Of a DNA stretch of 64,000 bases, positions 6,280-61,060 are shown piece by piece. Source of the DNA: Nymphaea colorata (Eukaryota > Streptophyta > Magnoliopsida > Nymphaeales > Nymphaeaceae). The DNA lies in assembly GCF_008831285.2 (NCBI RefSeq), contig NC_045140.1:19156370-19220369 (forward strand), given 5' to 3'. The notes beneath the pieces are model-generated. The model was not told the DNA's origin and did no database searches. It was given only the letters and a program-made list of their open reading frames with translations. The translations under genes were made by a program, and so were the position numbers. The first letter of the stretch is position 1; each line of letters opens with the position of its first letter.

Positions 6280-9200
6280 ATGGAGATGTGGGAGTTGATG
6301 GAAGAGATGACCAACAACATCGACGGAGAGCAGGAGAAGGTGCTGGCCGACATCCTCTCCCTGAATGCGCACACCGAATACCTGCAGAGGCATGGTCTCG
6401 CCGGAAACACCGACCGGGAGTCATTCAAGACGAGGCTGCCCGTCGTTAGCTATGAAGACATACGGCCGGACATCCAGCGCATAGCCGGCGGTGATCGCTC
6501 TCCCATCTTGTCCGCACTTCCTCTTTCCCACTTGCTTTGCAGGTCGGTCTCTCTATCTCTCTGCCCTTCAACCAGTTAAGAACAGAGCGGAGAAGATAAA
6601 TAGTCACGTAAGATGCGGCTCAACTGATCGCCGCTTCTTAATTTTCTTGCAGCTCCGGCACGTCAGGTGGTGAGAAGAAGTTGCTCCCACTGGTAGAAGG
6701 GGATCTCGACAGAGTGGAGATGTTTTGGAGGGTTATGGATAGCCTGATGAACTGGTATCTTATTTTTCCCCATCCTCATCTCCACGTATGACTGTCTTAA
6801 CCGACTTTCAGATCAGTGTGGCCTGACCATGGTTCTAAAAATCTGTTTCCGATTCGAATCGGAAACATGAAAAGCGATAGATATCGGGAACACGTCATTT
6901 CTTAGCTGCCTGTATCGTCCTTAAAAATTTGATATGGTATTTTAAATTATTAGTTTAGCAGCCTGTGTTGTGTTGCGTGGCATAAGTCAATATGGGCCGA
7001 GCCGGATATATATATATATATATATATAGTTTTAAAATAGTTTTAAAAGCAATCTTTGACATTTTTCTTTTACTAATCCATAATAGATTGCGTTGAATCC
7101 GCAGCTTGACAAATTCAACTCCCAAACCAGTTTTTAAGACGCTGGGTGCATCATACAGAGCTAATCTAATTTTCTACCAGATCAACTAAGCTAATTTTTT
7201 ATCATTTACTTTCATCTATACTTGTGAGATTCTCCTATGTCCTCATTTTTGCAAAATTTACGTACTTTCGGCCATCTGCATGGATTTTCTCTAAACAATA
7301 AACATCCTTACGTACCTAAAGAACTGAAATTTATTTGATGTCATGTTGTTCACAGTTAAAAGCTAAAAAATTATGGTTGAAAGCAACACAAATTATGGGT
7401 AAAAGAACTGGAAGTACACAAACCAATGCTAAAGGCATCGTCAACCATTGCATGCTAATGCACTGATACAACTGATTTTTAATGATTTTTTTTTTAAATT
7501 TTTCACCATCAAACAAATTTGAAGTCCTCCCTTTCTCTGGAATGTATATACATATATGGATGTCATTAGATCAAATTTGAATTGAATATATTCTCAACCT
7601 TGTTCACTTTTCTAGATATCCATATTAAATTTGGATTCAAATACAAATAAAGAAAATTGTCTAGGAATCCAAATTAAAAATCCAGTTTTCCAATCCAAAT
7701 CTCATTTCGGCGTGCCTTGTTAAAAAGAATGATCAGGAATTAAGTGTACTTCCTAAACTAAACACTTAATCTCTCTAGGCATGGCTCTGGTTTGAAGCAA
7801 GGCAAGACCCTCAAATTCATCCACGTTAGAAAAGAGTGCGAGACGGGTGCAGGCATTGCAGTTCGCTATCTTCTTACAAGCTGGTACAAGAGCGGTCACT
7901 TCCTTTCCAAGCACCATCATTACAGCACCACCCACACCAGCCCCGTCGCCTCTATACATTGCACAGACACGTTCCAGAGCACATACTCGCAGCTGCTCGC
8001 TGGCCTGGCCGATCGGCTGTCTGTCGTCCAGCTGAGCGCCACCTTCGCGCTGGGCCTGCTCCAGGCCATCCGCTTCCTCGAGCGCCACTACTTGGACCTG
8101 GCAATGGACATTGAGAAGGGAACGGTTGATCCTCGAATCACGGACAAAGATATCCGGGCGGCGCTGGAGACAAGATTGACACCTGACCCCGAGAACGCAA
8201 CGCATATAAGAAAAGAGTGTGGATGTGGGCAATGGAAGGGCATCATAAGAAGGATCTGGCCCAACGCCCAGTACTTGGAAGCCGTGGCGACGGGGAGTAT
8301 GAGTCTCTACGTCCCTGTCTTGGAGTTTTACAGCGACGGCCTGCCTCTGGTTAGCCTTGCGTATGCGTCGTCCGAGTGTTTCTTCGGGATCAACTTGAAC
8401 CCTTTCTGTAAGCTGGAGGATGTCACCTACACCATCATCCCGAATTTGGCCTATTTTGAGTTTTTGCCGGTCGAATCACCGGAAAATTGCCTGCAGCCGG
8501 CAGAACTCGTGAATTTGGCCGATGTTCAAATGGGGAAGGAGTACGAGATAGTGGTGACCACTTACTCAGGTAAGAATCTACCTTTCTTGTCGCTTATTTG
8601 TTCCATTCATGGTTAATCTTTCATCATTTATTTAAGTGCTCAATAGCGGAGCTAATTGGAAATCTTCGGCTGCACCGTGAACGCCATTAATATGTAAATA
8701 TGCAAACAAACACACCTAACTCCATTGATCTCACATGACCAGGTCTTTACCGTTATAGAGTGGGAGACATCCTGAGAGTCGTGAGTTTCTATAACAAAGC
8801 GCCCCAATTCAAGTTCGTTTGCCGTGGAAATGTTGTGTTAAGCATTGACATAGAAAAAACCAGTGAGGCAGATCTGCAGAACGCAGTAGCGGCGGCGGAG
8901 GCCGCTCACCTTATTCCACACAACACGAGGGTGGCGGAGTTTACTAGTTACGCCGACACCAGCACTACTCCCGGCCACTATGTCATTTACTGGGAACTCT
9001 CACGAACAACAGATCAGACGGAAGGTTTTTCAGCAGATTATTTGATTGGGCAGTGTTGTTTGGCAATTGAGGAATCATTTGATGCTACTTATAAAGAAGT
9101 GCGTGTTTATGACAGATCCATCGGGCCGCTAGAAATCAAGGTAGTGAAGAATGGCACTTTCGACAGACTCATGGATTTTGCTGTATCTAATGGTGCTTCC

Positions 9201-9314
9201 GTGGCTCAGTACAAACCTCCTAGGTGTGTGAAATCTGATTCCCTCCTGCAAATTTTAGATGCAGCGGTTGTTTCTGCCCATTTCAGTCCTCGTCCCCCAA
9301 GTTGGTCGAAGTAG
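6280..9314 (+). CDS. GH3-A, GH3 family acyl-acid amido synthetase
   Basis: Predicted exons are 6280-6542, 6653-6754, 7779-8569 and 8743-9314; all introns are GT-AG and the spliced frame is open for 575 codons. The family adenylates a carboxylic hormone such as auxin or jasmonate and joins it to an amino acid in the cytosol. ATP/AMP motif 1 is SSGTSGGEKK (residues 88-97), motif 2 YASSEC (317-322) and motif 3 GLYRYRVGD (386-394). Residues such as TGSM, EFYSDGLPLVS and VVTTYSGLYRYRVGD, and the C-terminal SIGPLEIKVVKNGTFDRLMD, resemble group II (IAA-type) enzymes rather than JAR1, but the substrate is inferred. Residue 122, at the exon 2/3 junction, is Trp where B, C and D have Arg. Intron 2 is 1,024 bp, longer than in the paralogs. 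The ATG was chosen because the paralogs align from it. Confidence 0.9.
7550..7720. repeat. A+T-rich repeat in GH3 intron 2
   Basis: This has the pattern TAGATATCCATATTAAATTTG, then AATCCAAATCTCATTT. Related copies sit in intron 2 of B (about 16,010-16,230), C (27,930-28,120) and D (37,920-38,110), and outside genes at about 26,150-26,370, 35,830-36,250 and 44,340-44,520. It is probably an old MITE-like element that was present in the ancestral intron. Confidence 0.5.
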
Positions 9315-15313: not shown

Positions 15314-17833
15314 ATGGAGATGTTGGAGTTGATGGAAGAGATGACCAACAACATCGACGGAGAGCAGGAGAAGGTGCTGGCCGATATCCTCTCCCTGAAT
15401 GCCAACACCGAGTACCTACAGAGGCATGGTCTTGCCGGGAAAACCGACCGGGAGTCATTCAAGACGAAGCTTCCCGTCGTTACCTATGAAGACATCCGGC
15501 CGGACATTCATCGTATAGCAAACGGTGACCGCTCTCCCATCTTGTCCGCCCTTCCCCTTTACCACTTCCTTTGCAGGTTTCTCTCTCTCTCTCTCTCTCC
15601 AACAAGTTAAAGAACAGAACGGGAAGAGAAATAATCACGTCGGATGAGAGTCGATTGACTGTGGCTTTTTAATTTTCTTGCAGCTCCGGCACGTCAGGTG
15701 GTGAGAAGAAGTTGCTGCCACTGGTAGAGGGGGATCACGACAGAGTGGAGATGGTAGTTAGGATTAGCGGTAGCTTGATGAACAGGTATCTTTTTCTCAT
15801 CCTCATCTCCATGTAAGACCGTCTTCACCGACTTTTGTTGAAAGCACCACAAATTATTGTTAAAGGAACTGAAAGTACACAAACCAATACTAAAGGCATC
15901 GTCAACCATTTCATGCTAATGCACCAGCAATAACTAGGTTCTAATGATTTTTTTTTTTGAAAATTTTCACCATAAGCCATTTATGTATAAATATGGATGT
16001 CTTTCTCTCGAAATGTATAAATATGGATGTCGATAGATCATATTTGAGTCTAATATACTCTTAACCATATTCATTTTTTCATATATCCATATCAAATTGA
16101 GATTCAAATACAAGTAAAAAAAGTTATATCAGAATCTGAATTCAAAATCCAGTTTTACAATCCAAATTACATTCGAATTAGATTTTTACATGTATAATAT
16201 TTATGTATATCCAAATTTGAATACGATCAAGTATTGTTGAACAAAAATGATCAAGAATTATGTGTACTTCCTAAATTAAATATTTAGTCTGTCTAGGCAT
16301 AGCTCTGTTTTGAAGCAAGGCAAGGCCCTCAACTTCGTCCACGTCAGAAAAGAGTGGGAGACTGGTTCAGGCATTGCAGTTCGTTATGGTGTTACAACCT
16401 GGTACAAGAGCAGTCACTTCCTTTCCAAGCACCATCATTACAGCACCACCCACACCAGCCCCGTCGCCTCTATCCATTGCACAGACACGTTCCAGAGCAC
16501 ATACTCACAGCTGCTCGCCGGCCTGGCCGACCGGCTGTCCGTCGCCCAACTGAGCGCCACCTTCGCGCTGGGCCTGCTCCAGGCCATCCGCTTCCTGGAG
16601 CGCCACTACCAAGACCTGGCAATGGACATTGAGAAGGGGACGGTTGATCCTCGAATCACGGACAAAGATATCCGGGCGGCGCTGGAGACAAGATTGGCAC
16701 CTGACCCCGAGAATGCAGCGCATATAAGAAAAGAGTGTGGACGTGGGCAATGGAAGGGCATCATAAGAAGGATCTGGCCCAATGCCCAGTACTTGGAAGC
16801 TGTGGCGACTGGGAGTATGAGTCCCTATGTCCCTATCTTGGAGTTTTATAGCGACGGTCTGCCTCTGGTTAGCCTTTTGTATGGGTCAACCGAGTGCTTG
16901 TTCGGGATCAACTTGAACCCTTTCTGTAAGCCAGAGGACGTCGCCTACACCATCCTCCCGTATTTGGCCTATTTTGAGTTTCTGCCGGTCGAATCACGGG
17001 AAAGTTGCCTGCAGCCGTCGGAGCTCGTGAATTTGGCCGATGTTCAAATGGGGAAGGAGTACGAGATAGTGGTGACCACTTACTCAGGTACGAATCTACA
17101 TTTTTTTTCACTTATTTGTTCCACTCATGGTTAATCATTCATCATATATAAAAATGCTCAATAGCGGAGCTAATTGGAAACCTTCGGCTGCACTCGTGAA
17201 CACCATTAATATGTAAATAAGCAAACAGACACAACTGACTCCATTGATCTCACATGACCAGGTCTTTACCGTTATAGAGTGGGAGACATCCTGAGAGTCG
17301 TGAGTTTCTACAACAAAGCGCCCCAATTCAAGTTCGTTTGCCGTGGAAATGTTGTGTTAAGCATCGACATAGAAAAAACCAGTGAGGCAGATCTGCAGAA
17401 AGCAGTAGCGGCTGCGGAGGCCGCTCACCTTATTCCACACAACACGAGGGTGGCAGAATTTACTAGTTACGCCGACACCACCACGACTCCCGGCCATTAT
17501 GTCATTTACTGGGAACTCTCACCAACAACAAATCAGATTGAAGGTTTTACAACAGATTATTTGATTGGGCAGTGTTGTTTGGCAATTGAGGAATCATTGG
17601 ATGCAACTTATAAAGAAGTGCGCTTTCACGACGGATCCATCGGGCCTCTAGAAATTAAGGTAGTGAAGAATGGCACTTTTGACAGACTCATGGACTTTGC
17701 TGTATCTAATGGTGCTTCCGTGGCTCAGTACAAACCTCCTAGGTGTGTGAAATCTGATTCCCTCCTGCAAATTTTAGATGCAGCTGTTGTTTCTGCCCAT
17801 TTCAGTCCTCGTCCCCCAAGTTGGTCGAAGTAG
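15314..17833 (+). CDS. GH3-B, GH3 family acyl-acid amido synthetase
   Basis: Predicted exons are 15314-15576, 15684-15785, 16297-17087 and 17262-17833 (575 codons, GT-AG introns). Exon lengths are identical to those of A, C and D. Motif 1 SSGTSGGEKK (88-97) and motif 3 GLYRYRVGD (386-394) are intact. Motif 2 is YGSTEC (317-322) instead of YASSEC, a change within the nucleotide-binding motif but still within the family range. Other differences from A are scattered (for example RFHDGSIGP instead of RVYDRSIGP). Role as for GH3-A: ATP-dependent conjugation of a small carboxylic acid to an amino acid, substrate not determinable here. Downstream, a copia element begins 572 bp after the stop and could affect 3' processing. 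Confidence 0.9.
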
Positions 17834-23907: not shown

Positions 23908-23919
23908 GCTCTGATACCA
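23908..23919 (-). other. Primer binding site (initiator tRNA-Met type)
   Basis: The minus strand reads TGGTATCAGAGC, the well-known complement of the 3' end of initiator tRNA-Met used by plant copia elements, directly adjacent to the 5' LTR end (TTATCA). Confidence 0.92.
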
Positions 23920-24510: not shown

Positions 24511-25101
24511 ATAAAAAATTGAGATAGATTATCGAAGCTTGTAACATATTGTTTTGATAAATCTACTCAAAATTTGGAGACAGAATCATTAGACACAATA
24601 ACAACCTTTTATGTGGGGGCAAAGAACCTCTTATAAACCACTTGAGAGTTGTGTTATTTTTTATGGTGGGGTGAACTTACTTACCGCTCATGTAAGTTCC
24701 AACGTAATCCATCGGTTGGGTTGTTGTTTACACTAATGTAGGACGAGAACTTTTATGAGCGGTAAGTAAGTTCACCCCACCATAAAAAATAACACAACTC
24801 TCAAGAGGTTTATGAGAGGTTCTTTGCCCCACATAATAGGTTGTTATTGTGTCTAATAATTCTGTCTCAAAATTTTGATAGATTTATCAAAACACTATGT
24901 TACAAGCTTCTATAATCTATCCCAATTTTTGAGGCAGTTTCATTAGAAAGTAACAATTTGGTACTGGTGTCAAAACGGCCTCTAAAGTCTCAATGCTATT
25001 CCAGGAAAGCCAGAATGGAGCTTCCAACATTCCAAGCCCTTCCAGAACAACAATCAACGTTTGGTTTTTGGTTGCTTGAGAACAATGGTGGTCCTTGTGG
25101 A
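24359..25101. repeat. Large palindrome, arms about 350 bp
   Basis: The left arm (about 24,359-24,710) and right arm (about 24,748-25,101) are reverse complements. The inner part is nearly perfect (CGGTAAGTAAGTTCACCCC and its complement) and the outer part more diverged (for example CAACGTTCCAAG against CAACATTCCAAG). The outer arm ends correspond to part of the F repeat. A single arm occurs at about 57,310-57,600. It could be a foldback-type element or an inverted duplication. Confidence 0.8.
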
Positions 25102-25189
25102 AGGCTCAGGACTAAATCATGTGCTCCCTTGAGATGAGAGCAAAAATTCATCCCAAATGCCCGAAGTCTTCTTTCCAATTGCTCAATTT

Positions 25190-27329: not shown

Positions 27330-29665
27330 ATGGAGATGTTGAAGTTGATGGAAGAAATGACCAACAACACCGACAGAGAGCAGGAGAAGGTGCTGGCCGA
27401 TATCCTCTCCCTGAATGCCCACACCGAGTACCTACAGAAGCATGGTCTCGCCGGAAACACCGACCGAGAGTTATTCAAGACGACGCTGCCCGTCGTTAGC
27501 TATGAAGACATCCGGTCGGACATCCATCGCATAGCAGACGGCGATCGCTCTTCCATCTTGTCTGCCCTTCCTCTTTCCCACTTCATTTGCAGGTCTTTCT
27601 CTCTCTCTTTCTCTCTGCCCTTCAACCAGTTAAAGAACAGAGCAGAAAAGATAAATAGCCACGTAAGATGCGGCTCAAGGGTTCTTAATTTTATTGCAGC
27701 TCCGGCACGTCAGGTGGTGAGAAGAAGATGCTGCCACTGGTAGAGGGAGATCACGACAGAGTGGAGATGGTAGATAGGTTTATGGGTAGCCTGATGAACA
27801 GGTATCTTCTTAAGACCTGAAAGTACACATACCAATACTAAAGGCATCGCCATGCATGCTAATGCACCTGCAACAACTGATTTTAAATGATTCCTTTTTC
27901 AGTTTTTCACCATCAAACAAATTTGAAGTCATATATAACGAATCAAATATGCTCTTAACTGTATTCACTTTTCTAGATATCCATATCCAATTTGAATTCA
28001 AATGCAAATAAAGAAAGTTGTATTTGAATCAGAATTCAAAATTCAGTTTTTCACTCCCATTCGAATTCGATTTTTACATTTATTATATTTATGTATATCC
28101 AAATTTGAATACAATCAAATATCATTTCGGTGTGCCTTGTTGAACAAAAAATTATTAGGAATTAAGTGTACTTCCTAAATTAAATTCTCTCTAGGCATGG
28201 CTCTGGTTTGAAGCAAGGCAAGAACCTGAACTTTGTCCACGTTAGAAAAGAGTGGGAGACGAGTGCAGGCATTCCAGTTCGCTCAGTTGTTACAAGCTGG
28301 TACAAGAGCAGTCACTTCCTTTCCAAGCACCATCGTTACAGCACCACCAACACCAGCCCGATCGCCTCTATACATTGCACAGACATGTTCCAGAGCATAT
28401 ACTCGCAGTTGCTCGCCGGCCTGGCCGACCGGTTGTCCGTCGTCCAGCTGTGCTCCACCTTCACGCTGGTTCTGGTCCAGGCCATCCATTTCCTTGAGCG
28501 CCACTACCAGGACCTGGCGAGGGACATTGAGAAGGGGACGGTTGATCCTCGAATCACGGACGAAGATGTCCGGGCAGCGCTGGAGACGAGATTGACACCT
28601 GACCCCGAGAACGCAGCACTTATAAGAAAGGAGTGTGGACGTGGGCAATGGAAGGGCATCATAAGAAGGATCTGGCCCAATGCCCAGTACTTGGCAGCCA
28701 CGGCGACGGGGAGTATGAGTCCCTACGTCCCTGTCTTGGATTTTTATAGCGATGGTCTGCCACTGGTTAGCCTTCTGTACGCGTCGTCCGAGTGCTTCTT
28801 CGGGATCAACTTGAACCCTTTCTGTAAGCCAGAGGACGTCGCCTACACCATCCTCCCGTATTTAGCCTATTTTGAGTTTCTGCCGGTCGAAACACCGGAA
28901 AGTTGCCTGCAGCCATCGGAGCTGGTGAATTTGGCTGATGTTCAGATGGGGAAGGAGTACGAGATAGTGGTGACCACTTACTCAGGTATGAATCTACCCT
29001 TGTTTTCGCATTCAAATGTAGGTTACTGTGATTGCCTGTTCTATTCATGGTTAATCTTTCATGTGTCTGACTCTGTTGATCTCACATTACCAGGTCTTTA
29101 CCGTTATAGAGTGGGAGACATCCTGAGAGTCGTGGGTTTCTATAACAAGGCGCCCCAATTCAAGTTTGTTTGCCGTGGCGATGCTGTGTTGAGCCTCGAT
29201 ATAGAAAAAACCAGTGAGGCAGATCTGCAGAAAGCAGTCGCGGCGGCGGAGGCCGCTCACCTTATTCCACACAACACGAGGGTGGCGGAATTTACTAGTT
29301 ACGCCGATGCGACCACCATTCCAGGCCACTATGTCATTTACTGGGAACTCTCACCAACAACAGATCAGACTGAAGGTTTTTTAGCAGATTATGTGATGGA
29401 GCAGTGTTGTGTGGTAATTGAGGAATCATTGGATGTATCTTATAAAGAAATGCGTGTTTACGACAGATCCATCGGGCCGCTAGAAATCAAGGTAGTGAAG
29501 AATGGCACTTTCGACAGACTCATGGACTTTGCTGTATCTAGTGGTGCTTCCGTGTCTCAGTACAAACCTCCTAGGTGTGTTAAATCTGCTTCCATCCTGC
29601 AAATTTTAGATGCAGCGGTTGTTTCTGCCCATTTCAGTCCTGGTCCGCCAAGTTGGTCTAAGTAG
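27330..29665 (+). CDS. GH3-C, GH3 family acyl-acid amido synthetase
   Basis: Predicted exons are 27330-27592, 27700-27801, 28195-28985 and 29094-29665 (575 codons). Motif 1 SSGTSGGEKK, motif 2 YASSEC and motif 3 GLYRYRVGD are all present, so an active adenylating and amide-forming enzyme is plausible; the group II-like sequence suggests auxin or a related acid as substrate, which is inference. It is nearly identical to GH3-D in exons and intron 2; differences I noticed include GAGIPV/SAGIPV near exon 3 start, EGFLADY/EGLSADY in exon 4, and TDREL/TDQKL in exon 1. Intron 3 is only 108 bp (87 bp shorter than in D), a multiple of three without an in-frame stop, so its retention would add 36 residues just before motif 3. 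Confidence 0.9.
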
Positions 29666-32970: not shown

Positions 32971-33140
32971 ATGGAGATGTTGGAGTTGATGGAAGAGATG
33001 ACCAACAACGTCGATGGAGAGCAGGAGAAGGTGCTGGCCGACATCCTCTTCTTGAATGCCCAATCCGAGTACCTGCAGAGGCATGGTCTTGCCGGAAAAA
33101 CAGACCGGGAGTCATTCAAGACGAAGCTGCCCGTCGTTAC
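32971..33140 (+). pseudogene. Truncated GH3 exon 1 relic (copy 3)
   Basis: It starts with an intact ATG and reads MEMLELMEEMTNNVDGEQEK and on to KLPVVT before the shared breakpoint, after which KIGLISDLDCEIRF and a TAG follow. About 57 GH3 codons are kept. It is better preserved than 1197-1366 and shares its 3' junction, so it could still yield a 72-codon peptide, but nothing suggests function. Confidence 0.85.
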
Positions 33141-33399
33141 AAAAATAGGATTGATATCAGATTTGGATTGTGAAATTAGATTTTAGATTTAGATTCAAAT
33201 CTAACAATTTTTTTGTTTGTATGTGATATGAATATGTGAATAATGGAATATGTGAATAATTGAAAATAGATGTGATTAAGGGCATATTCGATTAGAGTTC
33301 AATCCATTGACATGATGTTCACATTAATCCACCACGACTTTGACTATGGTCTCCAATGAATCATCATTCAATTTCCCCTAGATGCATATTTTGGAAAGG

Positions 33400-37307: not shown

Positions 37308-39739
37308 ATGGAGATGTTGAAGTTGATGGAAGAGATGACCAACAACACCGACAGAGAGCAGGAGAAGGTGCTGGCCGATATCCTCTCCCTGAATGCCCAC
37401 ACTGAGTACCTACAGAAGCATGGTCTTGCCGGAAACACCGACCAGAAGTTATTCAAGACGACGCTGCCCGTCGTTAGCTATGTTGACATCCGGTCGGACA
37501 TCCATCGCATAGCAGATGGCGATCGCTCTTCCATCTTGTCCGCCCTTCCTCTTTCCCACTTCATTTGCAGGTCTGTCTGTTTCTCTCTCTCTCTCTCTCT
37601 CTCTGCCCTTCAACCAGTTAAGAACAGAGCAGAAAAAATAAATAGTCACGTAAGATGCGTCTCAAGGCTTCTTAATTTTATTGCAGCTCCGGCACGTCAG
37701 GTGGTGAGAAGAAGATGCTGCCACTGGTAGAGGGAGATCACGACAGAGTGGAGATGGTAGATAGGTTTATGGGTAGCCTGATGAACAGGTATCTTCTTAA
37801 GACCTGAAAGTACACATACCAATACTAAAGGCATCGCCATGCATGCTAATGCACCTGCAACAACTGATTTTAAATGATTCCTTTTTTAGTTTTTCACCAT
37901 CAAACAAATTTGAAGTCATATATAACGAATCAAATATGCTCTTAACTGTATTCACTTTTCTAGATATCCATATCCAATTTGAATTCAAATGCAAATAAAG
38001 AAAGTTGTATTTGAATCAGAATTCAAAATTCAGTTTTTCACTCCCATTCGAATTCGATTTTTACATTTATTATATTTATGTATATCCAAATTTGAATACA
38101 ATCAAATATCATTTCGGTGTGCCTTGTTGAACAAAAAATTATTAGGAATTAAGTGTACTTCCTAAATTAAATTCTCTCTAGGCATGGCTCTGGTTTGAAG
38201 CAAGGCAAGAACCTGAACTTTGTCCACGTTAGAAAAGAGTGGGAGACGGGTGCTGGCATTCCAGTTCGCTCAGTTGTTACAAGCTGGTACAAGAGCAGTC
38301 ACTTCCTTTCCAAGCACCATCGTTACAGCACCACCAACACCAGCCCGATCGCCTCTATACATTGCACAGACATGTTCCAGAGCATATACTCGCAGCTGCT
38401 CGCCGGCCTGGCCGACCGGCTGTCCGTCGTCCAGCTGTGCTCCACCTTCACGCTGGTTCTGGTCCAGGCCATCCATTTCCTTGAGCGCCACTACCAGGAC
38501 CTGGCGAGGGACATTGAGAAGGGGACGGTTGATCCTCGAATCACGGACGAAGATGTCCGGGCAGCGCTGGAGACGAGATTGACACCTGACCCCGAGAACG
38601 CAGCACTTATAAGAAAGGAGTGTGGACGTGGGCAATGGAAGGGCATCATAAGAAGAATCTGGCCCAATGCCCAGTACTTGGCAGCCACGGCGACGGGGAG
38701 TATGAGTCCCTACGTCCCTGTCTTGGATTTTTATAGCGATGGTCTGCCACTGGTTAGCCTTCTGTATGCATCGTCCGAGTGCTTCTTCGGGATCAACTTG
38801 AACCCTTTCTGTAAGCCAGAGGACGTCGCCTACACCATCCTCCCTTATTTGGCCTATTTTGAGTTTCTGCCAGTCGAAACACCGGAAAGTTGCCTGCAGC
38901 CGTCGGAGCTGGTGAATTTGGCTGATGTTCAGATGGGGAAGGAGTACGAGATAGTGGTGACCACTTACTCAGGTACGAATCTACCCTTGTTTTCGCATTC
39001 AAATGTATGTTACTGTGATTGCCTGTTCTATTCATGGTTAATCTTTCATCATATATAGAGATGCTCAATATTGGAGTTAATTGGAAATCTTGGGCCGCAC
39101 CGTGAACTGCATTAATATGTAAATAAGCAAACAGACACACCTGACTCTGTTGATCTCACATTACCAGGTCTTTACCGTTATAGAGTGGGAGACATCCTGA
39201 GAGTCGTGGGTTTCTATAACAAGGCGCCCCAATTCAAGTTTGTTTGCCGTGGCGATGCTGTGTTGAGCCTCGATATAGAAAAAACCAGTGAGGCAGATCT
39301 GCAGAAAGCAGTCGCGGCGGCGGAGGCCGCTCACCTTATTCCACACAACACGAGGGTGGCGGAATTTACTAGTTACGCCGATGCGACCACCATTCCAGGC
39401 CACTATGTCATTTACTGGGAACTCTCACCAACAACAGATCAGACGGAGGGCCTTTCAGCTGATTATGTGATGGAGCAGTGTTGTGTGGTAATTGAGGAAT
39501 CATTGGATGTATCTTATAAAGAAATGCGTGTTTACGACAGATCCATTGGGCCTCTAGAAATCAAGGTCGTGAAGAATGGCACTTTTGACAGACTCATGGA
39601 CTTTGCTGTATCTAGTGGTGCTTCCGTGTCTCAGTACAAACCTCCTAGGTGTGTTAAATCTGCTTCCATCCTGCAAATTTTAGATGCAGCGGTTGTTTCT
39701 GCCCATTTCAGTCCTGGTCCGCCAAGTTGGTCTAAGTAG
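37308..39739 (+). CDS. GH3-D, GH3 family acyl-acid amido synthetase
   Basis: Predicted exons are 37308-37570, 37687-37788, 38182-38972 and 39168-39739 (575 codons, GT-AG introns). Motif 1 SSGTSGGEKK (88-97), motif 2 YASSEC (317-322) and motif 3 GLYRYRVGD (386-394) are intact. It is the sister of GH3-C; the near-identity extends through intron 2 (one difference noticed in 393 bp), indicating recent duplication or gene conversion. One exon 1 change (YVDIRSD instead of YEDIRSD) replaces an acidic residue that is Glu in A, B and C. Intron 3 is 195 bp and contains stops, unlike that of C. Function as for the other copies; the substrate is unknown. Confidence 0.9.
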
Positions 39740-50600: not shown

Positions 50601-52030
50601 TTCCCACTTATTTTGATGCAATTTTAAAATTTGGTTTTCTTTTATGCTTCTTCTTCTTATTACCTTAGGATACTCCCTCCTGTTCATGGACTACGCCGAC
50701 CGTTGGACTTGTTACAATGAACATCCATTATAGGTTCAGAACAACTACGTGCAACTTAATAAAATTGTAGAAAAAGAGGTTGTGTGCTCCTTTCTATAAT
50801 TTGTTTTATAAAACGTAGGGCCGCATAAAGTGTTTTGGATTATAACAGCATTTTGAAAAACAACTATAAAAAAAGAGTGGTAGGAATGAAATTAATTATA
50901 AAAGTTATAAAAATGCTTTTGGTCATTTGCACCCTTCTTGTGTCACTCTCGATTTTCTCTACTTTTACACCCTCACCAGCCAATAATCATCATGCACTTA
51001 GGTTATTGCTTCCATTTAAAAATAGCAGCAAGCTTTATGACTGCTTCTTGATGATCGTTCTTGTTATTCTTGTTGTCCTTTTGTTCTCTAGCCATTGTGC
51101 TGAAAAAAATCAGTGCCTACACCAGAATCGCCATCAACCCCTTGAAGAAGAAGAAAAAAAAGAAGAAAAGGACCAAAAAAAGAAAAAAGAAGAACAAAGT
51201 GAAAGTGAAAGAGAGTACCTTCAAGCCAGATTACTCTTGCCAAACCAAGTGTTTTATTATATAAACAGTGTTCCCATGGCAGCAAGAAGGCTTTGTCCAT
51301 TTCCATTTATTTTGATGCAATTTTAAAGTTTTGTTTTTTTTATGCTTTTTCTTCTTTTTACCTTAGGATACTCTCTCCTGTTCATCTTTTTACGCCGACC
51401 GTTGGACTTGTTACAATGAACATCCATTATGGATTCAAAACAACTACGTGCATCTTAGTAAAATTGTAGAAAAAGGGGTTGTGTGCTCCTTTCTATAATT
51501 TTGTTTATAAAACGTATGGCCACATTAAGCATTTTGGATTATAATAACATTCAAAAAACAACCCTAAAAAAAGAGTGGCGGGAATGAAATTAATTATAGA
51601 AGTTATAAAAATGGTATTGGTCACTCGCATCCTTCATGTCTCACTCTCGTTTCTCTGCACTTTTAAAAGTTATAAACCATGTTAAGGATGTGCATATTTT
51701 GACCATGAAATGGTTGCCATGTCCTACAAGATGTTAAGAAAGAACTACTTTCCAAGTATTAATTCAAGCCACGTAAGGTTGGATCAACTCCAATTCACAT
51801 GTTGCGCCAAAGAATGTAGAGATGTTAACTCTTTGAAGGTGAGGAAGCTTTAATTAGTCCTTGGTGTTGCTATGGTTATCGACGATGAAGGAGTATATTT
51901 GCTCACCTGACAGTAGGAGATGATCAGGAACGTCACTATACCTCGCACACCATTCAAGTTGTTTAAATTAGGAAAAGTTGGAAGCTATTCCGAAACTTAC
52001 TATTGTAAATTACAGTGGACAGGAATTGTG
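47640..52030 (-). repeat. Nested tandem array of about 2-kb units with F-box/FBD 3' ends
   Basis: The landmark ACCATGTTAAGGATGTGC recurs at 47,654, 49,680 and 51,677, giving unit lengths of 2,026 and 1,997 bp and a partial third. Each unit begins with a decayed copy of the FBD exon region of the gene at 52,909-54,338 (minus strand). The rest of each unit is two diverged sub-repeats offset by about 830 bp (landmark GCACTT at 48,139, 48,975, 50,164 and 50,994) with GAA-rich runs. Only small open frames exist. The array probably grew by unequal crossing over. Confidence 0.85.
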
Positions 52031-52320
52031 GTGGTACAATCGGCTGCAGGTCAAGGTGAATCTTCCTGGCCTTTTTTACTTGACAAACATGGCGAAACCG
52101 TGTGTTGACAAGTGCATTGTATTTCCCTACCTCTATGGATAAGCGTAGGGTGAAACTACGTAGCTCTGCCTTATGGGCCATGATCAATCTGTCAATGACC
52201 GCCATGAGATGCAGCCTGCCAAGCGATTTCCCAACGACTGCTCTTTTGCTGTAGTATATATCGTGAAGTTGAGGGTCTTCCTCGTCCAAGATCAGATCAG
52301 GCATGTGATAGATAGAGCAT
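51963..52320 (-). pseudogene. F-box/LRR exon 1 fragment
   Basis: The minus strand reads MPDLILDEEDPQLHDIYYSK and on to KKARKIHLDLQPI, matching the first part of the gene at 53,540-54,218 with few changes (for example VVGKSLG for VVGESLG). At DLQPI it is joined to the sequence found at the end of exon 2 in the parent (NSKFRNSFQLF), skipping about 630 bp. It is a rearranged, truncated copy and forms the end of the tandem array. Confidence 0.8.
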
Positions 52321-52689
52321 CGTCGTAACTTTATATTAAAAGCAACCGTAAGACACAATAGCCTGTTGAGCTACACGTTCTCTTTCTGTAGGTAATGGAA
52401 TCAATACCACAAACCTTTGTTGCTTTCGCACCTATGGTCATGTCGAGAGTCAAGAATAGCAAACACTCTCCACTGGGAGCTCACTCTTACCTGGCGATGC
52501 CTGATCTGATGGACAATGCTTATGTGACATTAATGCAATCAAACATGCTCCTTGATTAGTACACTACAGCAGCAAGAAACTAAGATTAAAATAGAAAGGT
52601 ATTCTCTATGATCCTGAAAAACTGCCACACCCTACCGCTGTTACTACTAGTAGAAAGATCCATTAACAAACATCGCAAGTTGTGTACAA

Positions 52690-52908
52690 GTTGTCTCTGA
52701 CTTCAGAAATGAATAATGAATAAACCATGTTAAAGATGTGCATATTTTGACCATGAAATGGTTGCCATGTCCTACAAAAGGTTAAGAAAGAAGTACTTTT
52801 CAAGAATTAAATCAAACCTCCTAAGGAACAAACCTGCTTCGTATCTTACAGTATTAATCCTGTCATCTTTCATATTACAGAAGCTCCAACCAACAGGAAT
52901 TCAGATTT
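52690..52908 (-). other. 3' flank of the F-box/FBD locus
   Basis: It contains the parent copy of the array landmark (ACCATGTTAAAGATGTGC), and about 230 bp here and in the following exon are absent from the array units. Probably 3' UTR and flank. Confidence 0.5.
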
Positions 52909-54338
52909 TCATGTATCACAGTCTTGTGTAGTGAGTGCTTTTGTTGCAGAAATAGTGCCATCTTCATGTAGAAGTCGCACTGTGTTTTTGTTTCCTCGTC
53001 CAATGAAAACACGTTCGGAGCTTAGTAGGGGTGCTCTACGAAGAAGACATTGGACCAACTTCAATTCACATGTTGTGCCGAAGAATGGAGAGATCTTAAC
53101 TCTTTGAAGGTGGGGAAGCTTTAATTCGTCCTTGGTGTTGCTCAGGTTATCGACCATGAAGGAGCAGAATTGCTCGCCTGATAGTGGGAGATGATCAAGA
53201 ACATCAGTATATCTGGCGCACTGTTCAAGCTGTTAAAATTAGGAAAAGTTGGAAGCTATTCCGAAACTTACTGTTGTCAATTATGAGGCTCCAGAGTAGA
53301 GGGCAACGATCCAGCAGAGTAGCAACATCTAGTTGGTGTTCTTTTTTTGTCGACGTCTGAAGCTTAAGCTTCCCCAATTTGTACAACTTACAATTCCAGT
53401 TACCTAGATCCTTTACACAAAAATAGAAGTAGACAGTTGAGAACACTTAAATGAAACAACCAGCTAGCTAGAACATGAGCAGTTGACGTTGGAACCATGA
53501 ACAACAATGGAGGGAAAGCAAGTGGACAATGGAACATACTGTAAAGATGCAGGGGGAAGGTTGGAGCGAATTTATGGAAGGTCAACTTCGGAATAGTCTG
53601 CATGGATCTATTTCTTTCTGAAATCGACAACAAGGGAAGCTGTAAATTTGGTGCTTCAATATCCAATCCTGCTATATCACGACAGCCTTTAATGGTCAAC
53701 TTGATAATTCTTGGTGCAGAGATGTTGAGCTCCATTATCCCGTAGCAGTTGAGAACCCCTGGCAGTACCATGTGCCCGAGGTTCAGACTTCTCATGGAGC
53801 AGTAGAGGCCTTCTCCATCTTGCGGCAGAGACTCAAAGTAACAACCCTTCAATCCCATCACCTCCAGATATGGGCAATCAGAAGGCCAAAACTGCAGCCT
53901 GTAAGGAGACAACCGAAAAAAACGGCGAGAGCCTCGATCTTCGTAAGGTTCAATCGGCTGCAGGTCAAGGTGAATCTTCCTGGCCTTTTTTACTTGACAA
54001 ACATGGTGAAACCATGTGTTGACAAGCGCATTGTATTTCCCTACCTCTATGGATAAGCGTAGGGTGAAACTACACAGCTCTGCCTTATGGGCCATGATCA
54101 ATCTGTCGATGACCGCCATGAGATGCAGCCTGCCAAGCGATTCCCCAACGACTGCTCTTTTGCTGTAGTAGATATCGTGAAGCTGAGGGTCTTCCTCATC
54201 CAAGATCAGATCAGGCATGTGCTTCCTCTTATTTCACCATCCTCTTGACACGAAGGAAATGCCGTTGTTAACTACTGGACGATCAAACCCATCTGCTACA
54301 ATGTTGATCATCTTCTCTGTGACCTTCATATTCGACAT
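52909..54338 (-). pseudogene. F-box/LRR/FBD protein gene, probably broken
   Basis: Minus strand. Exon 1 is about 54,338-53,540, exon 2 53,403-53,272 and exon 3 53,229-52,909. A degenerate F-box (VTEKMINIVADG to ISFVSRGW) is followed by an in-frame TGA (54,234-54,236) and then NKRKHMPDLILDEED, the usual segment after an F-box. LRR-like stretches follow (LEVMGLKGCYFESLPQ, MELNISAPRIIKLTIKGC, LLDRCPLLWSLIID), then an FBD-like end (LQRVKISPFFGTTCELKLVQ). Intact relatives are substrate receptors of SCF ubiquitin ligases. With standard splice sites, exons 2 and 3 do not join in phase in my model, a second sign of decay. An alternative start after the TGA would lack the F-box. Confidence 0.7.
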
Positions 54339-56214: not shown

Positions 56215-57250
56215 CACCTGCAACAGAAATTTCACCCTACGGGACATCAAATGTATCAACCTTGCAAACGCTCCTTAGAAGGCGAAGATGCCTGCCATGG
56301 GCTTCTTGCTTTTGTCCAGCTATTTTGCCCGTAAACGTGAACGGCACTCCTGGATTGATTATCCACCCAATTTTTCCTTGTCTAACAACACTTAAAAGTA
56401 AAAATTTAAGGACATGCCCTTCTATAACCATGACAAAACCACATCCAACTAACACAGGGAACGAACATAGCCGATCTAGACTTCCAACAGCTTTAAGTTT
56501 TGATTTAAAAGCCCATTTGGATCCAACTACGTTCATAGAAAGGTTCTCTTAGAATGAGTTCCCATGCATTATTGGATCGTAATGCACTCATTTCTTCTTT
56601 CATAGCCGCTCTCCATCCATCATGCTTTAAAGCTTGCTGCACCCTCTTAGGCTCTTTAGGAATACTTGAATAGATAGTTTGGACGTTGGCATATTTAGGG
56701 TTGGGTTTGTAGATCCCAGCCATAGATCTAGTGACCACCGTTCGGGTTCCCATGGATGTTGATGGAGGATTGGTGGTGACATCATTTCCATGATTTTCTG
56801 CACTATCACTTAGCTAAGTATATGGTTGCTCAGGCAGGTGGTGGGGTCAGCGTGTAATTGATGGAGGATTTTTGTAAGATAATAAATGGATGATACCTTT
56901 CCTTTTATTTTCTCCTTCTTCCACTAATTTTTCAGTTTGAGAATCGTAGGCTTGAATTTGCTGATCATGGGTATCGCAAAACAAGTTTGGAAAAGAATTT
57001 TGATTAGACTTCCATTGTTGTTCCCATGACTATAGCCGTCTGAATTTGAATTATACTTTTGCTTTGGGAAAGAATTTAAATTGGACTTTCCATTGTTGTT
57101 GCCATGACTGCAGCAGTCTTAATTAGACTTTCCATTGCTGTTAGATTTGTCATAGCCGTTAGCCAGCTTGGGACGAGTTGCATGTTCTTCCTTAATACAT
57201 CCTACTTTTACACTCATACCCAAATTCCATCGAATTTTAAACTGAATTTG
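56215..57250 (-). pseudogene. Internally deleted copia relic
   Basis: In minus-strand order, a Gag-tail segment (57,200-56,880; SNSDGYSHGNNNG, NSFPKQKYNSN) is followed directly by an RT N-terminal part (56,750-56,470): TRSMAGIYKPNPKYANV, HDGWRAAMKEEMSALRSNN, then NVVGSKWAFKSKLKAVGSLD. Protease and integrase are missing. After VGSLDRL the copia similarity stops, though the frame stays open for about 70 further codons of unknown origin. The Gag part is the same family as the relics upstream of GH3-C and D. Confidence 0.65.
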
Positions 57251-57309
57251 CCTGATTTTCAAAATGTAATAGCATTGAATATATGATACGTGTTTAAAAA
57301 TAAATCTGT

Positions 57310-57760
57310 AAGAGGTTCTTTGCCACCCATAACAGGTTGTTATTGTGTCTAAGAGTTCTGTCTCAAAATTTTGAGTAGATCAAACACTATGTTGCAAGCT
57401 TCTATAATCTATCTTAATTTTTAAACCAGTTTTATTAGAAATTAACAACTTGTTATTGGTGTCAAACAGCTTTTAAAGTCTAAATGTTTTTCAGGAAAGC
57501 CAGAATGGAGCTTCCAACGTTCCAAGCTCTTTCAGAACAACAATTAGCGTTTGGTTGCTTGAGAACAATGGCGGTCCTTGTGGAAGTGGAATCCACAAAC
57601 TGTATCAAACAAGGGACGCTGAAAACTATTTCGCGGTGCAACAAATGTGATAATTACTTGCGCAAGAAGAACACGCCAATAAAGGTTCTGTGCCCTGCTT
57701 CTGCAGGGAAGGTCAGCATGCTTTTTCCTGTTGGGGGAATGGAGTGGAGCAGGAGAGGTG
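57310..57760 (+). repeat. Inverted copy of the F repeat and palindrome arm
   Basis: Reading on the minus strand this is the 3' flank of a GH3-B-like gene, continuing straight from the F repeat into the palindrome-arm sequence without a copia element. It is thus a paralogous empty site for the copia insertion at 18.4 kb. The plus-strand frame 57,484-57,843 is the same unrecognised frame noted in the F repeat. Confidence 0.75.
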
Positions 57761-57994
57761 GGCAATTTCATTCCATGTTTTCCTTCCACGAATCAAACAA
57801 CCTTTTAAGTATAAAACAATTGCTCTGTTCGATTACATATTAATTCAAAGAAAGAACGAAAAACTCATTCAACCCATCACCAAGTGGGGGAATCCATATC
57901 TTATTTAATACAAACAGTAAAATCTGTGTAAATTCTTGCACATGAAACTTCAATCCAAGAGTGTCTGCCAGATGGAGACAACGATGCTGCAGTG

Positions 57995-58432
57995 CTACAT
58001 CGACCAAGTTGGGGGACGCGGACTGAAATGGGCAGAAACAACCGGTGCATCTAAAATTTGCAAGAGGGAAGCAGATCTAACACACCTAGGAGGTTTGTAC
58101 TGAGCCACGGAAGCACCACTAGATACAGCAAAGTCCATAAGTCTGTCAAAAGTCCCATTCTTCACTACCTTGATTTCTAGCGGCCAGATGGATCTGTCGT
58201 AAACACGCATTTCTTTATAAGTTGCATCCAATGATTCCTCAATTGCCAAACAACACTGCCCCATCAAATAATCTGCTGAAAAACCTTCCGTCTGATCTGT
58301 TGTTGGTGAGAGTTCCCAGTAAATGACATAGTGGTCGGGAGTTGTCGTGTTGTCGGCATAACCAGTAAATTCCTCCACCCTCATGTTGTGGGGAATAAGG
58401 TGAGCGGCCTCTGCCGCTGCTACTGCTTTCTC
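57995..58432 (-). pseudogene. GH3 exon 4 fragment, antisense arm
   Basis: The minus strand reads EKAVAAAEAAHLIPHN, then YVIYWELSPTTDQTEGFSAD, SIWPLEIKVVKNGTFDRLMD and HFSPRPPTWSM before TGA/TAG-type termination at 57,995. It is open from the middle of exon 4 to the stop and covers about 145 residues, but lacks exons 1-3 and motif 3. SIGPLEI is SIWPLEI here and in the facing copy, showing that the two arms share ancestry. The 3' flank is GH3-B-like. Confidence 0.88.
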
Positions 58433-58441
58433 CAGACCTAG

Positions 58442-59566
58442 ATAAAACAACCAGTGAGGCAGATTTGCAGAAAGCAGCAGCAGCGGCAGAGGTCGCTCAC
58501 CTTATTCCACACAACACGAGGGTGGCGGAATTTACTGGTTATGCCGACACCACCACAACTCCCGGCCACCATGTCATTTACTGAGAACTCTCACCAACAA
58601 CAGATCAGACGGAAGGCTTTTCAGCAAATTATTTGATTGGGCAGTGTTGTTTGGCAATTGAGGAATCATTGGATGCAACTTATAAATAAATGCGTGTTTA
58701 CAACAGATCCATCTGGCCTCTAGAAATCAAGGTAGTGAAGAATAAGGCTGGGCATCCCGACCAGTTAAAAATGAAAAAATCAAAGTCCGTCATTCAAAAC
58801 GGGCTGGTCAGAGACCCGGCCCGTTTCTAAATAGGTCGGGCCGGGCCCATGTAATATCGGGCCTCGAGCCTCGGGCTTCGGTTTATGCCAGAGGCCCGGC
58901 CCGATTATTAACGGGCTGGGCCGGGCTTTGAGGCGGGTTGCTACTTGCTAGCCTCTAGCTCACTCAAAAAATGAGCATGAACGTAAACCATGTGTACTTA
59001 ATAGAATAACAAAAACAAGCACAACACCAACCAGTAAAAAGTAGTCCTCTGAAGGAGCACTCGATGCAACCAACGATGAAGCAAGTAGAGCAGTTGTGCG
59101 ATGGCGGCGACCGACGAGAGGACCGGAGGAGGCGGCCAAGGGGCGACGGCCAATGAGGAAGACTGAAGGACTGGAGGAGGCAGTCTCGAGCTCGCGGGGA
59201 TGAAATTTCTTAATGAAACGAAAAGAGGAAAAGAAAACCTAACCCATAACCCTAAGTTCCTAATTCTCTAAGTTCATTTTTTTTTAAAGAAAAAAAATAA
59301 AACCCATGTCGTGCTTATCGGGCCGCCACCGATCACAGTGGCAGGCCCGGGCCGAGCCAAGCCCAATAAATTTGGCCCGAAAACTTTTTTGTCAAGGCCC
59401 AGGCCTGGGCCCCTGGCGGGCCGGGTACTGGGTACCCGACGGCGGCCCGGCCCGGTGCCCAGGCTTAGTGAAGAATGGCACTTTTGACAGACTTATGGAC
59501 TTTGTTGTATCTAGTGGTGCTTCTGTGGCCCATTTCAGCCCGCGTCCCCCAACTTGGTCGATGTAG
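58442..59566 (+). pseudogene. GH3 exon 4 fragment, sense arm
   Basis: It starts within exon 4 (KTTSEADLQK) and runs to PPTWSM followed by TAG. TGG to TGA in YWELS and GAA to TAA in YKEMR break the frame, the hAT element splits it after VVKN-coding sequence, and 24 codons are missing between SGASVA and HFSPR. It is more decayed than the antisense arm. Confidence 0.88.
58743..59467. mobile_element. Non-autonomous hAT element, 725 bp
   Basis: Termini TAAGGCTGGGCA and TGCCCAGGCTTA form a 12-bp inverted repeat with one mismatch. The 8-bp target duplication GTGAAGAA lies at 58,735-58,742 and 59,468-59,475. Removing element and one duplicate restores GTGAAGAATGGCACTTTT, exactly as in the intact GH3 exons. 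The ends are rich in GGGCCGGGCC-like motifs. No transposase is visible. Confidence 0.92.
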
Positions 59567-59804
59567 CACTGCAGCATCGTTGTCTCCATCTGGCAGACAC
59601 TCTTGGATTGAAGTCTCATGTGCAAGAATTTACACATATTTCACTGTTTGTATTAAATAAGATATGGATTCCCCTCCTTGGTGCTTGGTTGAATGAGTTT
59701 TTCGTTCTTTCTTTAAATTAACATGTAATAAAACAGAGCAAATGTTTTATACTTAAAAGTTTGTTTGATTCGTGGAAGGAAAACATGGAATGAGATTGCC
59801 CAAT

Positions 59805-60353
59805 TGACTACAGAAAATACCATTGGCTATGGACGTTGATGTTGATAGACAGAGTACATGAAGTACTTCCAATTGCTCAATTTTCTAATACATATAAAAG
59901 TACAGGGTTGCTTGAGATCCTTAAGACTTTGTACTACATTAATTTCATATGCCTACAATTGAAGTGAGTGAATGGTGAATTTAGCTATTGAGAGTTACAA
60001 ACTCACTCACGAAGGTTATTTACCGTTGAGAGAAAAGCAATTAAAAAAAATTATGAATTAATACTAGATAATGAAAATACACATCACTTTTTTTTTCATT
60101 GTTCTTCTTTTAACCATCCATTATAATGGATTAAATGAGCGTCACTCCAATGAGTCACCATTCAGTTACCCCCTAAAAAGTGGATGCATATTTTGGAAAG
60201 GGCATGTTGTGGTTGTAGTAGTTGGAAAAAGGTATTTTTTTGTTCCATCCTAGTCATATAGGAAATTAAGATGCTTGCATACGTAGACTTCATTTCCTCA
60301 CATATGAACAAAGAAATGAGAATTCATTTGATTAAACCAACAAAGCTACCGTG
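59805..60353 (+). repeat. Terminal piece of the GH3 unit with copia RNase H relic
   Basis: It contains sequence like the GH3-C/D promoter (GACGTTGATGTTGATAGACA), the GGTTGCTTGAGATCC module, then the beginning of the RNase H relic (KMLAYVDFISSHMNKEMRIH) as at 33,475. The match to 33,400-33,560 stops abruptly at CCAACAAAGCT(A/G) near 60,353, the outer limit of the array. Confidence 0.65.
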
Positions 60354-60359
60354 CTCCGA

Positions 60360-61060
60360 CTAGTTGATCTTTGACACGCTCTTTTAAATGGTTTGGATTA
60401 ACAGTTGAGTACATCAATGCTGTATTTAAGCACCATTTCTACCTACGCAACCACCCGCATGGGTTTCACTAATAAGTACAGTATCCTACATGGCTTTTAC
60501 CAATAACCATTCATTTCTATCTGACATTGGTAGGTATATTTATTTTTCACGTGCATAATTCTTAGATCTTAATTACCGTGTGAATCTCATACCTATTTAA
60601 TTAGGACTCACGACTAAATTTACAGTTTAATTTTTTGCTTCAAGACTTGGTCTTTTAGGACCAGTTATTGAAGACATTCAATTCTTTTATTGCTGTAGTC
60701 TCCTTTTTTATTGCTTTAGTCTCTTACCGAAGCTTAACCATCGAATTTCCGTGCAGCAACATTGTATAAAACTTTGTCTGGCAAACCAGGTAGAATTATA
60801 CTTAATACTTTTGTTTCTGTTACCAAGATTTTCCCAGTCTTCATCCTCCATATCAGCGTGATTTCCACTTCCCTTCCCTTTGTAAGCATTTTCTTGCCCA
60901 TTTAGACCGTCAAGTTATGAACTTTGACTTGCCAGTTGCCACAAGCCAAAACTTGACATGCCTGAGTACTTTTCAATTTCAAAATTTCCAACAATAGCTT
61001 TCATTTCTATTGAGAAGGTATTTTAAAAAAATGTAAAATGTGACTTAGGTATCAAGAAAG
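60360..61060. other. Intergenic, nothing recognised
   Basis: A+T-rich sequence without supported coding regions or matches to the array. Confidence 0.45.

What the first reader, a model, noticed from the sequence alone, without database searches (positions are those of the whole stretch)
57760..59801. Head-to-head GH3 exon 4 inverted repeat: candidate natural silencing hairpin
Two GH3 last-exon fragments with their 3' flanks face each other across a spacer of about 36 bp, and both resemble all four intact GH3 genes, especially in the GTMSF-coding half of exon 4. Inverted repeats of a gene fragment are a known source of small RNAs that silence family members in trans (for example the soybean CHS inverted repeat and Arabidopsis PAI loci). 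Here the arms lack the catalytic motifs, so a regulatory RNA is the only obvious product. It would act on an auxin- or hormone-conjugating family that is amplified 20-50 kb away. Arm lengths and orientation are seen; transcription and silencing are inference.
Basis: partly seen in the sequence, partly recalled or inferred. Interest (0 to 1): 0.75.

Follow-up and report, generated by a model that had tools for sequence, protein, structure and literature searches.

The report
Decaying GH3 gene-tail palindrome
Two mirror-image copies of the tail end of a plant hormone-conjugating (GH3) gene sit face to face beside a cluster of intact GH3 genes; if transcribed they would make a double-stranded RNA able to silence those genes, but the sequence looks more like decaying rearrangement debris than a kept regulator.

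Summary
The palindrome is real. Left arm 57759-58439 (-) and right arm 58445-58742 plus 59468-59802 (+) are copies of the last ~437 nt of GH3 exon 4 plus ~236 nt of 3' flank, head to head, 94.3% identical (567 of 601 aligned bases), ~21 nt apart. The right arm carries a 725-bp hAT-like insert, a 72-nt deletion and two stops, so an assembly foldback is unlikely. The window's genome, searched once, shows eight GH3 genes in the array, not four. The arms are sisters of each other, not copies of any living gene, and look older than the split of four of the eight. RNA from either strand could fold into ~580 bp of stem sharing 29-122 exact 21-mers with each gene. But no promoter was found: upstream-type flanks point outward and the scanned flanks hold no TATA motif. 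Methylation traces are weak. Best reading: a decaying inverted duplication thrown off by an unstable tandem array, dsRNA-capable, regulation unproven. A second, diverged GH3-tail palindrome lies on another contig. Small-RNA sequencing would decide.

The parts
57759..58439 (-). Left arm: last ~437 nt of GH3 exon 4 (whole GH3_C domain, frame open to the native stop) plus ~236 nt of 3' flank
   Evidence: PF23572 GH3_C E 6.6e-32, profile positions 3-117 of 119
57995..58384 (-). Open frame inside the left arm, 129 residues from an in-frame ATG to the native stop; G1-G4 have ACG at that codon, N1 and N2 also have Met there
   Evidence: probably chance survival: 77% of simulations stay open with 7 neutral substitutions, 54% with 16
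58440..58460 (.). Centre/loop between the gap-free arms (asymmetric: right arm reaches further into exon 4 than the left, ~30 bp by eye)
58445..58742 (+). Right arm, inner part (exon 4), with two in-frame stops
58743..59467 (.). hAT-like insert, 725 bp, ends TAAGGCTGGGCA / TGCCCAGGCTTA, about 53% GC
   Evidence: junctions and duplication; hAT assignment from the 8-bp duplication and end sequence, criteria recalled; stop-to-stop frames touching it reach 92 aa and were not scanned
58735..58742 (+). Target-site duplication GTGAAGAA, left copy
59468..59475 (+). Target-site duplication GTGAAGAA, right copy
59468..59802 (+). Right arm, outer part: end of exon 4 with a 72-nt deletion near 59527, then 3' flank
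57309..57758 (-). Outer flank of left arm: piece 'A' that also follows the 3' end of genes N1, N3 and G2, here inverted
56844..57308 (-). Piece 'W', found ~0.6-1.1 kb upstream of G3 and G4 and before N2, here inverted so that it points away from the arms
59803..60354 (+). Outer flank of right arm: pieces 'P-U' known from array intergenic and GH3-upstream DNA, pointing away from the arms
6280..9314 (+). GH3 gene G1 (possible target)
15314..17833 (+). GH3 gene G2 (possible target; closest window gene to the arms over exon 4 plus flank)
27330..29665 (+). GH3 gene G3 (possible target)
37308..39739 (+). GH3 gene G4 (possible target)

Best explanation
The locus is an old, decaying head-to-head inverted duplication of the 3' end of a GH3 gene copy, produced by rearrangement inside an unstable tandem GH3 array. 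Shown: structure, shared ancestry of the arms, later damage to the right arm, and predicted ability to fold. Inferred: a break inside exon 4 of a now-lost GH3 copy was resolved by sister joining or template switching, so both arms stop at nearly the same exon-4 position and carry no promoter, exons 1-3 or intron. It has since drifted. Any RNA crossing it, from either side, would read antisense first, then sense, and form dsRNA that Dicers could cut into GH3-matching siRNAs. The most likely state is no or low-level siRNA, mainly 24 nt, with no selected regulatory role.
For: The two arms group together in all three trees (support 0.98 coding, 0.945 flank, 0.99 combined) and no living gene falls inside the pair. 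Fourteen changes shared by both arms are absent from the four window genes; over columns ungapped in all eight genes, 11 arm-shared states are absent from all eight. The right arm carries two stops, a 72-nt deletion and an insert; its coding changes are 8 nonsynonymous to 3 synonymous, about the 75% expected without constraint. The flanks keep the array's own order of intergenic pieces with pieces missing (A then W on the left, P-U on the right), as expected from deletions. Other inverted duplications occur in the same 124 kb: window coordinates 13396-13637, 24358-25103, 66148-67890, 84405-84543 and two of at most 95 bp near -28.7 kb. No TATAWAW motif lies at 56900-57759 (+) or 59803-60700 (-), and the upstream-type sequences point outward.
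Against: The left arm has kept its whole reading frame, and the 283-bp inner stem is still 93% paired with only 3 of 270 pairs G-U. Left-arm changes (5 nonsynonymous to 4 synonymous) do not show drift as the right arm's do; these counts were polarised with the four window genes only. The promoter test is only a motif scan. A CpG deficit on the arms (O/E 0.40-0.58 against 0.64-1.16 in the matching parts of the four window genes; 5 of 10 gene-invariant CGs lost in each arm) may mean the locus is or was methylated. No transcript or small-RNA data were available, and there is no genome-wide background rate of palindromes.
Confidence: 0.68

Rival explanations
1. Natural trans-silencing hairpin: a promoter outside the arms makes a long hairpin RNA, Dicer cuts 21-22-nt siRNAs, and these lower expression of the eight GH3 genes.
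For: Near-perfect stem; exact 21-mers with all eight genes (L 61-122 of 660, R 29-75 of 593); CpG O/E of the arm-matching exon 4 slightly below exons 1-3 in 4 of 4 window genes (by 0.02-0.09). Known cases work this way: GmIRCHS in soybean (PMC13051633, passages) and Teosinte Pollen Drive (PMC11390486, passages).
Against: Head-to-head, promoterless arms; GH3 upstream-type pieces point outward; no TATA motif in the scanned flanks. An insert and a deletion interrupt the right arm; in maize W22 two large transposon insertions interrupt the Tpd1 hairpin locus, which makes no small RNA there (PMC11390486, passages). Four of the eight genes appear to have split after the palindrome arose.
Confidence: 0.12
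2. Local siRNA source: the locus is transcribed at low level and makes mostly 24-nt siRNAs that methylate itself, with little effect on the genes.
For: An Arabidopsis inverted duplication (siRNA02 locus) makes 24-nt siRNAs that need DCL3 and RDR2 (PMC350667, passages). The arms have lost CGs: 5 of 10 gene-invariant CGs in each arm to TG/CA, against 1 of 11, 4 of 16, 1 of 15 and 2 of 15 in G1-G4 judged against fewer reference genes.
Against: Four of the shifts at CG sites are shared by both arms, so they probably predate the palindrome. Non-CG C/G transitions are not raised: L 3 of 149, R 5 of 126, genes 1 of 166, 10 of 175, 6 of 187, 7 of 187. The Arabidopsis siRNA02 locus itself is reported hypomethylated (PMC350667).
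Confidence: 0.16
3. The left arm is a small gene for a free GH3 C-terminal domain.
For: The whole GH3_C domain (profile 3-117 of 119) lies in an open frame with an in-frame ATG; changes since the arm ancestor are 5 nonsynonymous to 4 synonymous.
Against: No promoter found; survival of the frame by chance is likely (54-77% of simulations); the counts are too small to show constraint.
Confidence: 0.02
4. Assembly artefact (foldback chimera).
For: Palindromes are a known artefact of long-read and amplified libraries (recalled).
Against: 34 differences in 601 aligned bases, a 72-nt deletion and a 725-bp insert with target duplication in one arm only; different outer flanks.
Confidence: 0.02

Closest known systems
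GmIRCHS, inverted repeat of pseudoCHS3 at the soybean I locus (PMC13051633, passages read)
   Same: Closely spaced inverted repeat of a gene fragment (1,087-bp repeat, 78 bp apart) clustered with a family member.
   Different: [quoted passage not shown] Here the arms are head to head, no promoter is seen, the arms have diverged by 5.7% and one is interrupted.
Tpd1 hairpin of Teosinte Pollen Drive (PMC11390486, passages read)
   Same: Long hairpin predicted to target a protein gene; a transposon-interrupted version also exists (W22).
   Different: Tpd1 makes abundant 22-nt siRNAs with cleavage evidence at the target; nothing comparable is known here.
Inverted-duplication origin of plant miRNA genes (model of Allen and colleagues, as described in PMC3237417, passages read)
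   Same: Inverted duplication of a target-gene segment, in divergent or convergent orientation, with similarity extending beyond a miRNA-sized stretch.
   Different: No miRNA-size foldback, no Rfam match in the window, no expression data; at most a very early stage.
Arabidopsis siRNA02 inverted duplication (PMC350667, passages read)
   Same: Plant inverted duplication as a possible siRNA source.
   Different: The two siRNA02 copies are ~2.1 kb apart; their siRNAs were detected on blots.

Membership tests
Natural inverted-repeat silencing locus (GmIRCHS type) | Closely spaced inverted repeat of a gene-family fragment | tested here: met
   283-nt inner arms 93% complementary, 21 nt apart; outer arms 275 nt, 95%
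Natural inverted-repeat silencing locus (GmIRCHS type) | Exact matches of siRNA length to the genes to be silenced | tested here: met
   29-122 exact 21-mers per arm and gene, all eight genes
Natural inverted-repeat silencing locus (GmIRCHS type) | Promoter placed to transcribe through both arms | tested here: inconclusive
   No TATAWAW in the two inward-reading flanks; upstream-type pieces point outward; a motif scan cannot exclude a promoter
Natural inverted-repeat silencing locus (GmIRCHS type) | Hairpin transcript and 21-24-nt siRNAs | not testable with these tools
Natural inverted-repeat silencing locus (GmIRCHS type) | Loss of the locus raises target expression | not testable with these tools
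   Needs plants
MIRNA gene of inverted-duplication origin | Known miRNA family or short miRNA-like foldback | tested here: not met
   No Rfam family at gathering score in the window; the stem is long and near-perfect throughout
hAT superfamily (insert 58743-59467) | 8-bp target duplication and short terminal inverted repeats beginning T/C-A | tested here: met
   GTGAAGAA on both sides; TAAGGCTGGGCA / TAAGCCTGGGCA; criterion recalled
hAT superfamily (insert 58743-59467) | Related autonomous element with hAT transposase | not tested
   Frames touching the insert reach 92 aa and were not scanned; no other copy in the 124-kb region; genome not searched with it
GH3 acyl-acid-amido synthetase family (array genes) | GH3 N-terminal, central and C-terminal Pfam domains | tested here: met
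   PF03321, PF23571 and PF23572 all hit in the G3 stretch; best solved relatives GH3.6, GH3-1, GH3.5 (same stretch). Only G3 of eight genes was scanned; the others are judged by alignment to it

The most novel reading that the evidence does not exclude
An old GH3 inverted duplication has acted as a built-in brake on an eight-gene tandem GH3 array, supplying siRNAs against the C-terminal-domain exon while the array grew, with a second GH3-tail hairpin on another contig; the hAT insertion then weakened it.
Probability: 0.08. Interest if true: 0.7.

Novelty: new member of a known kind. Interest (0 to 1): 0.3.

Why it matters
Few natural gene-fragment inverted repeats have been tested for silencing of their parent family (recalled). 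Here the target genes and the possible silencer lie on one chromosome with a readable history of duplication, so small-RNA data could show directly whether palindromes in tandem arrays become regulators or simply decay. If it were active it would act on genes related to auxin-conjugating enzymes. If not, it is an ordinary product of array rearrangement.

Tried and rejected
Rejected: assembly foldback (34 of 601 differences, one-arm insert and deletion, different outer flanks). Rejected: 'GTMSF half of exon 4' (motif absent). Considered and dropped: a methylation scar as proof of silencing. The CpG deficit on the arms rests on 10 sites, four of the CG-site shifts are shared by both arms and so probably older than the palindrome, and non-CG changes are not raised; the genes' own exon 4 is only marginally lower in CpG than exons 1-3 (four window genes only). 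Considered: coding constraint on the left arm; 5 nonsynonymous to 4 synonymous is too few to judge, and at least one 'left-arm' change (to Met) is also found in N1 and N2. Considered: the palindrome as a captured fragment inside a transposon, as seems possible for the C9 palindrome; not favoured for this locus because its flanks A, W, P and U are the array's own intergenic pieces in array order.

Dead ends: the paper search for GH3 with inverted repeat and siRNA (2 papers), GH3 with phasiRNA (30 papers, 10 listed) and GH3 tandem pseudogene (10 papers) listed no paper whose title or abstract start describes a GH3 inverted repeat; only listings were seen, so absence from print is not claimed. 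Rfam gave nothing. A genome-wide count of the C9 palindrome and of all GH3 genes was not obtained. No background rate of palindromes in this genome was obtained.

Limits: one genome; species not named by the tools; trees use at most ~680 bp, and gene conversion between array members is visible (G1 groups with N3/G2 in coding but not in the 3' flank), so relative ages and the arms' exact sister are rough.

Full report
WHAT IS THERE. The inverted repeat is real. The left arm, 57759-58439 on the minus strand, and the right arm, 58445-58742 plus 59468-59802 on the plus strand, are copies of the last ~437 nt of GH3 exon 4 and ~236 nt of 3' flank. They face each other with their truncated 5' ends. 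Ungapped inner arms are 283 nt at 93% with 21 nt between; outer arms are 275 nt at 95%. Over all aligned positions the arms agree at 567 of 601 (94.3%). The inner hairpin RNA folds at -481.1 kcal/mol, z -46.7 against 100 shuffles. RNA across the whole locus is predicted to keep stems of 259, 57 and 265 bp, leaving the insert outside them.

The right arm is not a plain arm. A 725-bp hAT-like insert lies at 58743-59467 with the 8-bp duplication GTGAAGAA. There is a 72-nt deletion (365 against 437 coding positions) and two stops. 'GTMSF' is not encoded in exon 4; the residues there are NGTFDRLMDF. The left arm retains the entire GH3_C domain (PF23572, profile 3-117 of 119) in an open frame.

THE GENES. 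Four window genes (G1 6280-9314, G2 15314-17833, G3 27330-29665, G4 37308-39739) have four exons, GT-AG introns and 575 residues each. Closest solved structures are GH3.6, GH3-1 and GH3.5 (run on the G3 stretch), so an auxin-conjugating type is likely but not shown. The window's own genome answered once: 407.8 Mb, 783 contigs, window at C3:19156370-19220369. Four more near-complete GH3 genes lie to the left: N1 at 19129602-19132622, N2 19136347-19138642, N3 19145478-19147868, N4 19153268-19155545. Their exon stretches read open, but full coding sequences were not assembled and the start codon of N3 was not found with the motif used. Exon-1 scraps also occur at window 1216-1392 and 33001-33165 and, left of the window, at C3:19140266-19140406.

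ANCESTRY. With all eight genes the two arms are sisters in the coding, flank and combined trees (support 0.98, 0.945, 0.99). Their next neighbour varies: G2/N3/G1 in the coding tree (0.894), N3/G2 in the flank tree (0.674), and the long-branched N1 in the combined tree (0.812). By identity over exon 4 plus flank, N3 is closest (91.8% to each arm). By exact 21-mers the left arm shares most with N1 (122 of 660). No living gene is the direct parent. The arms differ by 5.7%, more than N2, N4, G3 and G4 differ among themselves (1.8-3.4%), so the palindrome looks older than that part of the amplification. Gene conversion could make genes look younger than they are.

SURROUNDINGS. Going outward from the left arm come piece A, which also follows N1, N3 and G2, then W, known upstream of N2, G3 and G4, both inverted. 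Outward from the right arm comes P-U, found together between N1 and N2 and between N3 and N4, with P also just upstream of G3 and G4. Each side keeps the order of a normal array spacer with parts missing. This fits two truncated GH3 3' ends from one parent copy joined head to head, followed by separate deletions; the joining event itself is inferred.

COULD IT SILENCE? In favour: exact 21-mers with every gene (left arm 61-122 of 660, right arm 29-75 of 593). Against or neutral: a hairpin needs a promoter reading inward from an outer flank, since the arms lack the gene's 5' part. No TATAWAW occurs at 56900-57759 (+) or 59803-60700 (-), and the upstream-type sequences W and P point away. CpG O/E is low on the arms (0.58 and 0.54 for L, 0.55 and 0.40 for R, coding and flank), against 0.64-0.79 and 0.64-1.16 in the same parts of the four window genes. 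Those genes' arm-homologous exon 4 (0.79, 0.64, 0.74, 0.68) is slightly below their exons 1-3 (0.81, 0.73, 0.77, 0.70) in four of four, by 0.02-0.09, and at or below the uncovered first 135 nt of exon 4 (0.79, 0.88, 0.79, 0.79). That direction is what trans-methylation would give, but the size is small and untested for chance. Of 10 CGs invariant in the four genes, each arm lost 5; four shifts at CG sites are shared by both arms. Non-CG transitions are not raised (L 3 of 149, R 5 of 126; genes 1 of 166, 10 of 175, 6 of 187, 7 of 187). So there is no clear sign of trans-methylation of the genes and only a weak sign of methylation on the arms.

KNOWN PARALLELS. GmIRCHS of soybean is the nearest: a 1,087-bp inverted repeat of pseudoCHS3, 78 bp apart, but tail to tail and with a DnaJ promoter region (PMC13051633, passages). 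Tpd1 of teosinte makes 22-nt siRNAs from a long hairpin; in maize W22 two large transposon insertions interrupt that locus and it makes no small RNA (PMC11390486, passages). The siRNA02 inverted duplication of Arabidopsis makes 24-nt siRNAs (PMC350667, passages). The inverted-duplication model of miRNA birth allows divergent or convergent copies (PMC3237417, passages).

A SECOND GH3 PALINDROME. On C9 a 2,230-bp palindrome (L015:3784-6013, arms 96.2%) carries GH3 exon-4 scraps and 3'UTR-like sequence in both arms, tail to tail. One arm of it shares only 0-4 exact 21-mers of 1,095 with the exon 4 plus flank of each of the eight genes, so it is a poor silencer of this array. A related fragment lies at window coordinate ~84551-85223. 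Copy number could not be obtained.

VERDICT. Observation mostly right, with the interruptions missed and the gene count too low. The silencing reading is possible and testable but not favoured. New member of a known kind; interest 0.3.

Noticed in passing
L015:3784-6013 (G000:C9:14669283-14671512): Second GH3-tail palindrome, 2,230 bp, arms 96.2% identical, tail to tail; its outer parts match a 1.7-kb palindrome near window coordinate 66148-67890 and the repeat array at 48-50 kb.
   Followed up: partly
window 18115-24515: Copia-type LTR element (ORF 18713-23026 minus; LTRs 18393-18700 and 23923-24230, 98.7%) flanked on both sides by the same 285-bp piece (18115-18399 = 24231-24515, 98.2%), far longer than a usual target duplication.
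   Followed up: partly
window 24358-25103: Another palindrome (86.5%) of spacer piece A, followed by U as at the 57-kb locus but without the GH3 arms, as if a similar palindrome had lost its middle.
   Followed up: partly
window coordinates 66148-67890 (C3, right of the window): A 1,743-bp palindrome with 97.2% identical arms, nature unknown.
   Followed up: no
window 1902-2321: Open frame that looks like plastid ATP synthase beta, probably plastid DNA in the nucleus (by eye; the family scan failed).
   Followed up: no
window 1216-1392 and 33001-33165: Two exon-1-only GH3 scraps that diverge from the genes at the same point and share their downstream sequence.
   Followed up: no
G1 exon 4 versus 3' flank (window 8743-9570): G1 groups with N3/G2 in the coding part (97.9%/94.3%) but with N2/N4/G3/G4 in the 3' flank (90-91%), a sign of gene conversion or recombination near the stop codon.
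   Followed up: partly
window 47651-54221: Tandem array of ~1-2-kb repeats, up to ~93-96% alike, parts of which match the outer part of the C9 palindrome.
   Followed up: no
L016:2507-5124 (C2 contig): A divergent GH3 gene (about 55-62% amino-acid identity over exons 3-4 to the array genes), elsewhere in the genome.
   Followed up: no
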